Origin: Bacteroidales bacterium | GTDB lineage: Bacteria; Bacteroidota; Bacteroidia; Bacteroidales; UBA932 | Assembly (NCBI GenBank): GCA_022648685.1 | Contig: JALCMW010000004.1 | Span: forward strand, 186,001 to 250,000 | DNA length: 64,000 nucleotides | Reading direction: 5' to 3' | Shown here: positions 47,644 to 54,199 of the stretch, one piece after another | How the letters are laid out: every line of letters starts with the position of its first letter | How positions within the stretch are numbered: the stretch's first letter is position 1 | Position numbers and translations under genes: made by a program | The notes under the pieces: generated by a model | Seen by the model: the letters and a program-made list of their open reading frames with translations, nothing else | Told to the model about the DNA's origin: nothing | Databases searched by the model: none

Positions 47644-48102
47644 CTATACTGAATAATCGTAAAAAATCGTGACTATGATTCCATCTTTAACCACCAAATA
47701 GACATTATCGTCACTCTTCGGGTATAGCAAATAAAGCTCTCCATCTTCATCTGTCCTTATATACTGAGGCTTGCCGTATTTGAAATTGTCAAGTTTCGAT
47801 AACGGGTCCCCGACCCGGATCCCACCATCTATATCAAGCGTCAATGCTGCAAAACGGCGGTCTCTAATAACAAAATTCCTAAACTTTCCGGTCTCTTCAA
47901 AATGAAACCACGTCTTTCCATAAAAATATTCCTCACTTAAGCCGAATTCATCATATTGTTTTCGATATTTATCAGGCTTCCCGAATTTTGCCACGACCTG
48001 GGCATAAGTCATTTTCTGATCCGCGAATACGCCTTCGACATCCTGCGCAAAAGCATTGATTGACAATGCAATGATAAAACCGATTAATATTATCTTTTTC
48101 AT
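47644..48102 (-). CDS. Array copy 1, secreted two-half protein (N-type W, C-type P)
   Basis: MKKIILIGFIIALSINAFAQ leader; KTWFHFEETGKF; YLLYPKSDDNVYLVVKDG. Confidence 0.9.
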   Translation of the reverse strand: MKKIILIGFIIALSINAFAQDVEGVFADQKMTYAQVVAKFGKPDKYRKQYDEFGLSEEYFYGKTWFHFEETGKFRNFVIRDRRFAALTLDIDGGIRVGDPLSKLDNFKYGKPQYIRTDEDGELYLLYPKSDDNVYLVVKDGIIVTIFYDYSV

Positions 48103-48167
48103 GTTTTTGGGTTTATTGATCGCAGCCTGGTAATCGGGGAGCGAAGATATTGAACGATGAACTCACT

Positions 48168-48635
48168 CTATACCGGATAATAATAGAAAATTGTGACTAT
48201 TATGTTATCTCTAACCCGGAGATAAACGTGATCATCACAATTATTATACACTGAATATTGTTTGTCTCCATTCTCATAATCTTTGACATACTGAGGTTTC
48301 CCGGATTTGAAATTGTCAAGTTTAGATAACGAATCCCCAACCCGGATCCCACCATCTATATCAAGTGTCAAAACAGCAAAACGACTTTCGGTAATAACAA
48401 AATTCCTAAACTTTCCTGTCTCTTCAAAATGGAGTCTGTTATTATTACCGTAAACATAATCTTCACTAATTCCGAATTCATCATTGACTTTATGATATAA
48501 GTCAGGCTTTCCGAATTTCGCCACGACCTGGGCATAAGTCATCTTCTGATCCACGCGCATGCCATCCACATCCTGCGCAGACGCATTGACTGACAATGCA
48601 ATAATAAAACTGATTAGCAATATTTTTTTCATCAC
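48168..48635 (-). CDS. Array copy 2 (N-type R, C-type N)
   Basis: NNNRLHFEETGKF; YSVYNNCDDHVYLRVRDN. Confidence 0.9.
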   Translation of the reverse strand: MMKKILLISFIIALSVNASAQDVDGMRVDQKMTYAQVVAKFGKPDLYHKVNDEFGISEDYVYGNNNRLHFEETGKFRNFVITESRFAVLTLDIDGGIRVGDSLSKLDNFKSGKPQYVKDYENGDKQYSVYNNCDDHVYLRVRDNIIVTIFYYYPV

Positions 48636-48673
48636 ACTCAGTTATTTGGCTGTAAATATCGTAAGATACATCC

Positions 48674-49456
48674 TTACCGATGACCATTTAAATGTAGCCG
48701 TGACTCAACTTCAGCGACACATACGCGGCCGACAACTTCTCCTCTGTATATGCCATCAGAAGAAGAAGAACTTTTCTCCGGACTCTTTCTCACAAGGCTG
48801 ATAACCTTAACTCTGCTATAAGAAGCTATTTGCCCCGGATCAATCACATCGCCGAGACGGATAGGGCCTCCACGATAGAAACAGACATTTCGGCAACTGC
48901 CGTCAAGATTACTGTACAAGACAATCCCCATGAATCCACCTTTGTCCAGATAGTTGAATGAATCCGCTCCATATAGGTCCAGATAAGCCTTTGACGGGAT
49001 AAGGGCGGCAATATACGTTCTTACCTTATTTGCCGCAGTGTCAATCACTTCAAGAAGATACTTCTTGACAATCGTTATATCTTCCGGCCGGATCACCGGA
49101 TTAAGAGAATCCTGAACAGAGACATCAAGGTCCGATTTTACCTCAATGAAAGGAATCTGAGTTATATGACGGTGGTTAAAGTCGAGCTCCTCCATTCTTC
49201 CCCTATCGAGAAGTGACTCCAAACTCACAAGGTTGCCATTGTCCCCTGACCCCGATTTTGTCGAAAGCCCCTTTGTAATTGAGGGCAAATTCATATAAAG
49301 AATGTTTTCTTTAGAAACCATTACATCCTTAAAAGCGCCTTTTTGCTTTATCTCACTTTTGCCGATTGGCAGTTGGGATAGTTCCTGTTGCCCGCAAAAG
49401 GGCAACGCTACAAAAAATGACAGAATAATAATTAGAATATTAGGCCGCACAATCAT
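48674..49456 (-). CDS. Secreted ~260-aa Bacteroidales protein, paralogue of 55286..56071, lying between array copies 2 and 3
   Basis: KGAFKDVMVSKENILYMNLPSITKGLSTKSGSG identical in both; C-terminal tail diverges after CVAE. Confidence 0.85.
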   Translation of the reverse strand: MIVRPNILIIILSFFVALPFCGQQELSQLPIGKSEIKQKGAFKDVMVSKENILYMNLPSITKGLSTKSGSGDNGNLVSLESLLDRGRMEELDFNHRHITQIPFIEVKSDLDVSVQDSLNPVIRPEDITIVKKYLLEVIDTAANKVRTYIAALIPSKAYLDLYGADSFNYLDKGGFMGIVLYSNLDGSCRNVCFYRGGPIRLGDVIDPGQIASYSRVKVISLVRKSPEKSSSSSDGIYRGEVVGRVCVAEVESRLHLNGHR

Positions 49457-49487
49457 TGGTTATAATATTATGGATTAGTCTCAACTT

Positions 49488-49518
49488 CAAATATAATGTT
49501 TTTTATTAAAATAATCAA
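49488..49518 (-). promoter_or_regulatory. Promoter of the 48674..49456 gene
   Basis: TTG-N20-TATATTTG on the minus strand; same arrangement upstream of the paralogue. Confidence 0.65.
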
Positions 49519-49536
49519 CGTCTTTATGAATCCTCT

Positions 49537-52104: not shown

Positions 52105-52166
52105 GTTTTTTGGTTTATTGATCACTGGTTCGCAATGGGAACGAAGATATTGCAAGATAAATTACT

Positions 52167-52625
52167 CTATACTGGATAATAGTAGAAAATTGTGACTATT
52201 ATGCCATCCTTCACTGTAAGATAAACGTTATCATTACACTTTGGGTATAACACATAGTTCTCTCCATCTTCATCTGTGTTTACATATTGCGGCTTACCGG
52301 ATTTGAGATTGTCAAGTTCCGATAACGGATCCCCGACCCGTATCCCGCCATCGATATCAAGTGTCAATGCTGCAAAACGGCGGTCTCTAATAACAAAATT
52401 CTTAAACTTTCCTGTTTCTTCGAAATGTAGTATGCTATTACCGTAAATATATTCTTCGCTCGTTCCGAATTCGTCATTAACTTTATGATATCTATCCGGC
52501 TTTCCGAATTTCGCCACGACCTGGGCATAAGTCATCTTCTGATCCACGCGCATTCCATCCACATCCTGCGCAAATGCATTGATAGATAATGCAATAATAA
52601 AACCGATTAATATTATCTTTTTCAT
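52167..52625 (-). CDS. Array copy 8 (N-type R, C-type P)
   Basis: GNSILHFEETGKF; YVLYPKCNDNVYLTVKDG. Confidence 0.9.
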   Translation of the reverse strand: MKKIILIGFIIALSINAFAQDVDGMRVDQKMTYAQVVAKFGKPDRYHKVNDEFGTSEEYIYGNSILHFEETGKFKNFVIRDRRFAALTLDIDGGIRVGDPLSELDNLKSGKPQYVNTDEDGENYVLYPKCNDNVYLTVKDGIIVTIFYYYPV

Positions 52626-52686
52626 GTTTTGGTTTATTGATCACCGGTTCGCAATGGGAGCGAAGATATTGAACGATGAACTCACT

Positions 52687-53145
52687 CTATACCGGATAAT
52701 AGTAGAAGATTGTGACTATTATGCCATCTCTAATCACCAAATAGACATTATCGTCACACTTCGGGTATAGTAAATAAAGTTCACCATCATCATCTGTCCT
52801 TACATACTGCGGTTTGCCGTATTTGAAATTGTCAAGTTTCGATAATGGGTCTCCGACTCTGATCCCGCCATCTATATCAAGCGCTAAAGCTGCAAATCGA
52901 CGGTCTTTGATAACAAAATTCTTAAACTTTCCTGTCTCTTCAAAATGAAACCACGTTTTGCCATAAAAATATTCCTCGGTTAAGCCAAATTCATCATAAC
53001 GTTTTAAATATCTATCCGGTTTCCCGAATTTCGCCACGACCTGGGCATAAGTCATCTTTTGATCCACGCGCATGCCATCCACATCCTGTGCAAACGAATT
53101 AATTGACAATGCAATAATAAAACCGATTAATATTATCCTTTTCAT
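52687..53145 (-). CDS. Array copy 9 (N-type W, C-type P)
   Basis: KTWFHFEETGKF; YLLYPKCDDNVYLVIRDG. Confidence 0.9.
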   Translation of the reverse strand: MKRIILIGFIIALSINSFAQDVDGMRVDQKMTYAQVVAKFGKPDRYLKRYDEFGLTEEYFYGKTWFHFEETGKFKNFVIKDRRFAALALDIDGGIRVGDPLSKLDNFKYGKPQYVRTDDDGELYLLYPKCDDNVYLVIRDGIIVTIFYYYPV

Positions 53146-53210
53146 GTTATTTGGTTAATTGATCACAGCCTGGCAATCAGTGAACGAAGATATTGAACGA
53201 TGAATTCACT

Positions 53211-53672
53211 CTATACCGGATAATAGTAAAAAATTGTGACGATTATGCCATCTCTAACCCGGAGATAAACGTGATCATCACAATTATTATACAATGAATA
53301 TAGAGTGTCCCCATTCTCAGAATCCGGGACACACTTAGGCTTACCATATTTGAAATTGTCAAGTTTCGATAATGGGTCTCCGACTCGGATCCCGCCATCT
53401 ATATCGAGCGTCAAGGCTGCAAATCGACGATCTTTGATAACAAAATTCTTAAACTTTCCGGTCTCTTCGAAATGAAACCATGTTTTGCCGTAATAATATT
53501 CCTCGCTTAAGCCGAATTCATCATATTGTTTTTGATAAGTATCGGGTTTCCCGAATTTTGCCACGACCTGGGCATAAGTCATTTTCTGATCCACGCGCAT
53601 TCCTTCGACATCCTGCGCAAACGCATTGATTGACAATGCAATAATAAAACCGATTAATATTATCCTTTTCAT
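53211..53672 (-). CDS. Array copy 10 (N-type W, C-type N variant)
   Basis: KTWFHFEETGKF; YSLYNNCDDHVYLRVRDG; internal ATG preferred. Confidence 0.88.
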   Translation of the reverse strand: MKRIILIGFIIALSINAFAQDVEGMRVDQKMTYAQVVAKFGKPDTYQKQYDEFGLSEEYYYGKTWFHFEETGKFKNFVIKDRRFAALTLDIDGGIRVGDPLSKLDNFKYGKPKCVPDSENGDTLYSLYNNCDDHVYLRVRDGIIVTIFYYYPV

Positions 53673-53737
53673 CTTTTTGTGTTTGTTAATCACAGCCTGG
53701 CAATCGGGGAACGAAGATATTGAACGATAAACTCACT

Positions 53738-54199
53738 CTATACCGGATAATCGTAGAGAATTGCAACTATGATTCCATCCTTAACCATCAGGTAAACGTG
53801 ATCATCACGATGATTATACACTGAATATTGTTTATCTCCATTCTCATAATCTTTCATATACTGAGGCTTGCCGTATTTGAAATTGTCAAGTTTTGATAAC
53901 GGATCCCCGACTCTTATCCCGCCATCTATATCAAGAGTCAATGCTGCAAATCGACGGTCTTCGATAACAAAATTCTTAAACTTTCCTGTCTCTTCAAAAT
54001 GTAACCACGTTTTTACATAATAATAGTCCTCAGTTAAACCGAATTCATCATAATGTTTTCGATATTTATCCGGCTTACCGAATTTTGCCACGACCTGGGC
54101 ATAAGTCATCTTCTGATCCGCGAGTACGCCTTCGACATCCTGCGCAAAAGCATTGATTGACAATGCAATAATAAAACCGATTAATATTATCTTTTTCAT
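53738..54199 (-). CDS. Array copy 11 (N-type W variant, C-type N)
   Basis: VKTWLHFEETGKF; YSVYNHRDDHVYLMVKDG. Confidence 0.9.
   Translation of the reverse strand: MKKIILIGFIIALSINAFAQDVEGVLADQKMTYAQVVAKFGKPDKYRKHYDEFGLTEDYYYVKTWLHFEETGKFKNFVIEDRRFAALTLDIDGGIRVGDPLSKLDNFKYGKPQYMKDYENGDKQYSVYNHRDDHVYLMVKDGIIVAILYDYPV

What the first reader, a model, noticed from the sequence alone, without database searches (positions are those of the whole stretch)
47644..54199. Half-module shuffling: all four N-half/C-half combinations are present
N-halves fall into type W (DEFGLxE-Y-YGKTWFHFEE) and type R (NDEFGxSE-Y-YGN-xLHFEE). C-halves fall into type P (TDE-GE-Y-xYPK-DDNVYL) and type N (ENGD-xYSxYNNCDDHVYL). 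Reading the copies gives W-P (1,6,7,9), W-N (5,10,11), R-N (2,3) and R-P (4,8). All four combinations imply recombination or gene conversion, with the crossover in the highly conserved centre (RRFAALTLDIDGGIRVGDPLSKLDNFK).
Basis: seen in the sequence. Interest (0 to 1): 0.85.

Follow-up and report, generated by a model that had tools for sequence, protein, structure and literature searches.

The report
Shuffled two-domain inhibitor gene array
A gut-type Bacteroidales genome carries eleven side-by-side copies of a small secreted two-domain protein whose front and back halves have been recombined in every combination, next to a broken cell-wall-cutting enzyme gene that these proteins probably neutralise, which suggests a bacterium building a varied set of antidotes.

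Summary
Eleven complete ~152-aa secreted genes (47644-54199, minus strand) carry two N-half types and two C-half types in all four combinations, exactly as listed. Homoplasy and a single shared tree are rejected: PHI p=1e-4; AU tests exclude each half's tree on the other half (delta lnL 139-208); synonymous markers co-segregate within a half but not between halves. The best single breakpoint is codon 102-111, but the genes are finer mosaics than one central crossover.

What it is: a confident AlphaFold2 model shows two tandem alpha-beta4 modules. The closest solved folds are weak matches to DUF4309, the beta-lactamase inhibitor protein (BLIP) and OsmE, a superfamily proposed to inhibit periplasmic enzymes. 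The 'half' is thus a structural domain. Half-swapping recurs in homologues from other genomes and metagenomes.

In 16 of 39 genomes the genes lie directly downstream of a predicted lipoprotein M23 peptidase. Here that gene is split by an in-frame TGA and its second copy is truncated, while all 11 small genes stay open under purifying selection. Best reading: an expanded immunity/inhibitor array against M23 cell-wall endopeptidases that outlived its own enzyme. The inhibitory function is inferred. Nearest precedent: recombining EsaG immunity arrays.

The parts
47644..48102 (-). copy 1, type W-P, 152 aa, signal peptide + two alpha-beta4 modules
48168..48632 (-). copy 2, type R-N, 154 aa
48674..49456 (-). 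truncated second copy of the peptidase gene's N-terminal domain (260 aa, M23 part absent); interrupts the array; 80% aa identical to 55286-56071, within an 833-bp duplicated block (87% nt identity)
49537..49998 (-). copy 3, type R-N, 153 aa
50065..50529 (-). copy 4, type R-P, 154 aa
50595..51056 (-). copy 5, type W-N, 153 aa; the copy whose structure was modelled
51122..51580 (-). copy 6, type W-P, 152 aa
51646..52104 (-). copy 7, type W-P, 152 aa (a longer TTG start is also open)
52167..52625 (-). copy 8, type R-P, 152 aa
52687..53145 (-). copy 9, type W-P, 152 aa
53211..53672 (-). copy 10, type W-N, 153 aa (a longer GTG start is also open)
53738..54199 (-). copy 11, type W-N, 153 aa
54209..55276 (-). 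M23 peptidase portion (InlB-type B-repeat PF18998 + M23 PF01551; metal/catalytic-type residues H181, D185, H250, H295, H297 present); in frame with 55286-56071 but separated by one TGA, so it has no signal peptide of its own
55286..56071 (-). lipoprotein-type signal (LTFC) and N-terminal domain of the same peptidase, ending at the in-frame TGA; in relatives the two parts are one ORF of about 520-615 aa
47230..47577 (-). twelfth, partial unit: array spacer and signal-peptide coding sequence joined to an unrelated reading frame

Best explanation
The array is a set of periplasmic proteins made of two BLIP/SmpA-like alpha-beta4 modules. Unequal crossing-over and gene conversion between tandem copies reassort the two modules, mostly near the conserved inter-module segment, and so create new pairings of two variable binding surfaces (recombination shown; binding role inferred). 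Their most likely job is to bind and block M23-type peptidoglycan endopeptidases of the kind encoded directly upstream in many relatives, i.e. immunity or inhibitor proteins (inferred from operon position, fold and cell compartment). In this genome the local peptidase gene and its partial duplicate are both disrupted while 11 intact small genes remain, so the array probably now acts as an orphan immunity repertoire against enzymes from neighbouring strains (inferred). Step confidences: recombination 0.97; two-module BLIP-like fold 0.85; inhibitor or immunity role toward the M23 partner 0.6; orphan repertoire here 0.5.
For: Recombination: PHI, four-gamete, AU, BIC breakpoint and shared-tract tests. 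Family-wide half-swapping: with 44 homologues the N- and C-half trees reject each other (delta lnL 657 and 502). Examples are P0072/P0094 (N-half 100%, C-half 53%), P0093/P0115 (C 100%, N 56%), P0011/P0016 (same N-half, same listed contig length), and G409 tandem copies. Fold: model with mean pLDDT 85, two alpha-beta4 modules; best Foldseek hits include DUF4309 YjgB 4ygt, BLIP-like 3d4e, YfeY, BLIP and OsmE; 3d4e is also the top weak sequence hit (E 0.04). BLIP, PepSY, SmpA_OmlA and DUF2874 share a fold and were proposed to inhibit a partner, with YpmB/SleB a lytic-enzyme case (PMC2954215). Operon: an M23 gene of one subfamily lies immediately upstream, same strand, in 16 of 39 genomes with the family, often 4-20 bp away; the own genome has only 7 M23 loci. 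M23 metal and catalytic positions are invariant across seven loci. Disrupted enzyme: in-frame TGA and truncated second copy, against mostly 530-614-aa open frames in relatives. Selection: dN/dS 0.28-0.35 in the variable segments, 0.09-0.12 in the conserved mature segments.
Against: No binding or inhibition was tested. Foldseek E-values to BLIP-fold structures are modest (0.003-1) and whole-chain TM-scores low (about 0.3-0.46); no Pfam family passes its cut-off. Nine genus genomes carry related M23 genes with no such small gene beside them, so the enzyme does not always need one. 23 of 39 genomes have the small genes without an intact M23 gene seen adjacent, some of them at contig ends. The variable segments evolve under purifying, not positive, selection on average. 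The strand-alternation test that would place variable residues on one sheet face is borderline (p=0.05). How the M23 enzyme would reach a rival is unknown; no T6SS VipB gene was found. The TGA could be an assembly error or specific to this strain.
Confidence: 0.55

Rival explanations
1. The M23 lipoprotein is a housekeeping peptidoglycan hydrolase, and the small proteins are periplasmic regulators that restrain it inside the same cell, not antidotes against rivals. Copy number reflects dosage, with concerted evolution as a by-product of tandem arrangement.
For: Related M23 genes exist without small genes in nine genus genomes, in conserved gene orders, so the enzyme is not obviously lethal. 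PepSY/BLIP-fold proteins are thought to regulate self enzymes (PMC2954215). Variable regions are under purifying selection.
Against: Eleven divergent copies (mature dS about 0.58) persist where the enzyme gene is disrupted. The family is patchy, in 31 of 400 genus genomes. Copies differ mainly in two strand-rich segments and are reshuffled, which dosage would not require.
Confidence: 0.2
2. The proteins inhibit other periplasmic or secreted enzymes (beta-lactamases, the neighbouring T9SS subtilases, or host or predator proteases), and the M23 association is incidental.
For: BLIP binds class A beta-lactamases and its fold is among the nearest matches. Two S8 peptidases with T9SS tails lie close upstream in this window.
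Against: The M23 gene is the recurrent same-strand neighbour in unrelated loci; subtilases or beta-lactamases were not seen as recurrent neighbours in the loci inspected.
Confidence: 0.12
3. The array is an antigenic-variation store: tandem secreted surface proteins reshuffled to evade immunity or phage, with no inhibitory role.
For: Tandem, mosaic, secreted, variable segments in predicted strands.
Against: All copies have their own start and signal peptide, so none is a silent cassette. Signals look like signal-peptidase-I type (read by eye), suggesting soluble periplasmic proteins; no anchor or T9SS tail was found. The fold belongs to a proposed inhibitor superfamily, and the M23 operon link would be unexplained.
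Confidence: 0.08
4. The half types reflect convergent selection at a few sites, not exchange.
For: Type-defining residues cluster in two short segments.
Against: Synonymous markers track the types, shared tracts span up to 45 polymorphic sites, and PHI/AU tests reject a single tree.
Confidence: 0.02

Closest known systems
EsaG (and TipC) immunity gene arrays of the type VII secretion system (Garrett et al. 2022, PMC9484751)
   Same: Strings of up to about 12 non-identical tandem immunity genes; variable regions separated by homology blocks; trees of the variable regions disagree; recombination through conserved blocks and intergenic spacers; orphan arrays without the toxin gene.
   Different: EsaG protects against a T7SS-secreted nuclease in Firmicutes. 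Here the proteins are periplasmic, Bacteroidales, and sit beside an M23 cell-wall peptidase; the favoured exchange point lies near the boundary between two predicted structural domains. No protein relationship was found by the searches run.
Homogeneous polyimmunity loci of polymorphic toxin systems (Zhang et al. 2012, PMC3482391)
   Same: Tandem paralogues of one immunity family, proposed as reservoirs against non-self toxins.
   Different: The paper's held text contains no mention of BLIP, SmpA, lysostaphin or 'peptidase M23'. The M23 partner here has a conserved peptidase domain and a more divergent N-domain, unlike the conserved-N, variable-C layout of polymorphic toxins.
rAID orphan immunity arrays of Bacteroidales (PMC12247911)
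   Same: Co-oriented short orphan immunity genes in Bacteroidales.
   Different: rAID has a tyrosine recombinase and T6SS targets. Here one family only, no recombinase among the neighbouring genes examined, no T6SS VipB in the genome.
BLIP / SmpA_OmlA / PepSY / DUF2874 / DUF4309 superfamily (PMC2954215)
   Same: Secreted periplasmic proteins; duplicated alpha-beta4 module; proposed inhibitors of a partner enzyme, including a lytic enzyme.
   Different: No Pfam model passes its threshold; tandem arrays and module swapping of this kind were not found in the papers searched.

Membership tests
BLIP/SmpA-like (BLIP-fold) superfamily | alpha helix plus four-stranded antiparallel sheet module, duplicated | tested here: met
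   Model of copy 5, mean pLDDT 85: H33-40 + E45-51, 54-61, 64-69, 73-79; then H101-104 + E113-117, 123-126, 135-140, 143-149.
BLIP/SmpA-like (BLIP-fold) superfamily | significant structural match to solved members | tested here: inconclusive
   Top Foldseek hits include DUF4309, BLIP-like, YfeY, BLIP and OsmE, with E 0.003-1 and low whole-chain TM.
BLIP/SmpA-like (BLIP-fold) superfamily | sequence match above a curated Pfam cut-off | tested here: not met
   Best scores seen: PF24880 DUF7738 18.7 bits vs 24.6 cut-off; PF14172 DUF4309 13.6 vs 25. Not filed as a member of any named Pfam family.
Toxin immunity family / homogeneous polyimmunity locus | tandem paralogues of one small protein family | tested here: met
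   11 copies, one interruption.
Toxin immunity family / homogeneous polyimmunity locus | linkage to a cognate toxin-like enzyme gene | tested here: met
   M23 gene directly upstream, same strand, in 16 of 39 genomes.
Toxin immunity family / homogeneous polyimmunity locus | neutralises the toxin | not testable with these tools
   Needs binding, activity and protection assays.
EsaG-type recombining immunity array | intergenic recombination among paralogues through conserved blocks | tested here: met
   PHI, AU, tract and breakpoint tests.
EsaG-type recombining immunity array | homology to EsaG and link to a type VII secretion system | not tested
   No Pfam match to any immunity family; a T7SS was not searched for. 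The resemblance is in mode of evolution only.
rAID | adjacent tyrosine recombinase | tested here: not met
   Neighbouring genes examined (36616-46435 and 56596-63823) are metabolic, S8 peptidase or PorV-like genes.
M23 peptidase (upstream gene) | PF01551 match and HxxxD / HxH metal and catalytic residues | tested here: met
   PF01551 E 2.6e-9; H181, D185, H250, H295, H297 invariant across seven loci.

The most novel reading that the evidence does not exclude
A combinatorial immunity system: tandem two-module BLIP-fold inhibitors that swap whole structural modules by recombination, giving many N-module x C-module pairings from few module types, each pairing neutralising a different allele of a lipoprotein M23 cell-wall endopeptidase used in warfare among Bacteroidales.
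Probability: 0.35. Interest if true: 0.85.

Novelty: new variant of a known kind. Interest (0 to 1): 0.6.

Why it matters
It links three things that are separately known: recombining immunity arrays, BLIP-fold inhibitors, and M23 cell-wall endopeptidases. If the inhibitor role holds, it gives a new enzyme/inhibitor pair in uncultured gut Bacteroidales and a natural experiment in domain-wise protein reassortment: eleven closely related two-module binders with known module swaps. That would make it possible to measure how module pairing sets binding specificity, and to ask whether antidote repertoires grow by reassortment faster than by mutation.

Tried and rejected
Homoplasy at a few sites: rejected by synonymous markers and AU tests. 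A single central crossover as the whole story: rejected as too simple (the middle segment is incongruent with both halves), although BIC prefers one break. Positive selection on the variable halves: not seen by pooled Nei-Gojobori (dN/dS 0.28-0.35). Variable residues on one sheet face: visible by eye in strand 45-49, but the test is only p=0.05. Pfam, NCBIfam and PADLOC naming of the small proteins: nothing above cut-off. The 11-sequence alignment gave a useless model (pLDDT 45); the 63-sequence alignment worked. Both scans of genome contigs found nothing, so relatives came from the genome search. T6SS-linked effector: no VipB in the genome. Viral origin: one BFVD fold hit (E 8e-5), isolated and not pursued. 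[quoted passage not shown]
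Full report
WHAT IS THERE. The window lies in a 2.43-Mb assembly (G000, contig C4); named homologues are from Candidatus Cryptobacteroides and other Bacteroidales. Eleven intact ORFs of 152-154 codons lie head to tail on the minus strand between 47644 and 54199, mostly with conserved ~65-bp spacers, each with its own start and signal peptide (MKKIILIGFIIALSINAFAQ). They are the only family members found in the genome apart from a signal-peptide-bearing fragment at 47230-47577. The array is interrupted once, between copies 2 and 3, at 48674-49456.

CHECK OF THE OBSERVATION. Sixteen nucleotide sites separate the N-types perfectly and fifteen the C-types, some of them synonymous (codons 54, 57, 129), so the types are inherited blocks.

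RECOMBINATION TESTS. PHI is 0.545 against a permuted mean of 0.735 (SD 0.010), p = 1e-4; the Hudson-Kaplan minimum is 37 intervals. AU tests reject the C-tree on N data (delta lnL 138.6) and the N-tree on C data (208.1); the central 43 codons reject both. The best single breakpoint is codon 106 by FastTree likelihood (gain 226) and codon 111 by IQ-TREE (BIC 5125 to 4801); extra breaks raise the likelihood but not the BIC. A GENECONV-like test finds long shared tracts, for example copies 2 and 3 identical over 45 polymorphic sites (codons 112-136), copies 3 and 4 over codons 38-56, copies 5 and 7 over codons 3-30 (p-values are per pair and uncorrected for 55 pairs). LD decays with distance.

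THE HALVES ARE DOMAINS. A profile of the 11 copies found 193 homologues. A 63-sequence alignment gave an AlphaFold2 model of copy 5 with mean pLDDT 85 and two successive alpha-beta4 units (helix 33-40 with four strands to 79; helix 101-104 with four strands to 149). The best PDB matches include DUF4309 YjgB (4ygt), a putative beta-lactamase inhibitor protein (3d4e), YfeY, BLIP itself and OsmE. E-values are modest, but the hits are coherent and 3d4e is also the best weak sequence hit. So the N-half and C-half are the two modules of a BLIP-like protein, and the favoured crossover region lies in or near the segment between them. Variable positions concentrate in strands of both modules (codons 45-66 and 113-150; strands hold 53% of the entropy in 38% of positions), and strand 45-49 alternates variable and fixed residues, though the alternation test overall is borderline (p = 0.05).

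HALF-SWAPPING IS FAMILY-WIDE. Among 44 thinned homologues outside this genome, the N-half and C-half trees reject each other (delta lnL 657 and 502). P0072 and P0094 have identical N-halves and 53% identical C-halves; P0093 and P0115 have identical C-halves and 56% identical N-halves. In genome G409, tandem copies 6650 and 7181 of L141 match at 95-100% in the N-half variable region, but 7181 shares part of its C-half with the other copies.

THE NEIGHBOUR. Immediately upstream lie 55286-56071 and 54209-55276, one reading frame broken by a single TGA. The first part has a lipoprotein-type signal and a conserved N-domain; the second an InlB-type B-repeat and an M23 peptidase domain. In relatives this is one ORF of ~520-615 aa. 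Genes of this M23 subfamily lie directly upstream of the small genes, same strand, often within 20 bp, in 16 of 39 genomes that carry the family, across several genera (my count; a 17th, G163, has only a fragment). With 7 M23 loci in the whole own genome, chance adjacency should be below 1% per gene (assuming about 2,000 genes). The metal-binding and catalytic-type residues are invariant in seven loci. Against an obligate pair, nine genus genomes in two conserved gene contexts have a related M23 gene and no small gene.

THE INTERRUPTION. 48674-49456 is a partial duplicate (833 bp, 87% nt identity, dN/dS 0.38) of the N-domain without the M23 part. So the locus probably once held at least two enzyme-plus-small-gene units, and now has two disrupted enzyme genes and eleven open small genes under purifying selection (dN/dS 0.22 for the mature protein; 0.28-0.35 in variable segments, 0.09-0.12 in the other mature segments).

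MECHANISM PROPOSED. The small proteins carry signal peptides and are probably periplasmic, where an M23 endopeptidase would act on peptidoglycan. Their superfamily has been proposed to inhibit partner enzymes, including YpmB on the lytic enzyme SleB (PMC2954215). They are therefore most likely immunity or inhibitor proteins for M23 enzymes, diversified by reshuffling their two modules. With the local enzyme gene disrupted, the array would serve as orphan immunity. Shown: copies, types, recombination, predicted fold, gene linkage, disrupted enzyme frames. Inferred: binding, inhibition, warfare, benefit of shuffling.

COMPARISON WITH WHAT IS KNOWN. The mode of evolution closely parallels EsaG and TipC immunity arrays, where recombination through homology blocks reshuffles variable regions and orphan arrays occur (PMC9484751). 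Homogeneous polyimmunity loci (PMC3482391) and rAID arrays (PMC12247911) are related ideas. None of the papers found describes an M23/BLIP-fold pair or module swapping in this family. I therefore call it a new variant of a known kind. It is not filed under any named Pfam family because the curated cut-offs were not met.

Noticed in passing
46648-47577: Downstream of copy 1 the array's spacer and signal-peptide coding sequence is joined to an unrelated frame (47230-47577), followed by open pieces in other frames (46863-47267, 46648-46989) that look like one frameshifted gene; the array seems to have donated its signal peptide.
   Followed up: partly
55286-55288: A single in-frame TGA splits the M23 lipoprotein gene in the linker between N-domain and M23 part; the 355-aa piece is listed from 5 contigs.
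   Followed up: partly
56596-63823: Two repeats of a pair: 318-aa protein (56596-57552, PorV-family-like; 60225-61181, same length) and S8 subtilase with a type IX sorting tail (57560-60169, 61190-63823); looks like a tandem duplication of a putative T9SS protease unit.
   Followed up: no
L075 9570-10352: In genome G150 one family member is fused to a C-terminal extension that resembles a TonB C-terminal domain (by eye), 260 aa in all.
   Followed up: no
L084 1597-2676: In genome G336 two family units are fused in one 359-aa protein, so the tandem also occurs within one polypeptide.
   Followed up: no
L141 5558-8720: Genome G409 has its own tandem array of four copies with mosaic C-halves beside an M23 gene, and a second locus (L142) with an M23 remnant and one copy.
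   Followed up: partly
L125-L133: Nine genus genomes have a related M23 lipoprotein gene in two conserved gene contexts without any small-protein gene; a natural control for what the enzyme does on its own.
   Followed up: partly
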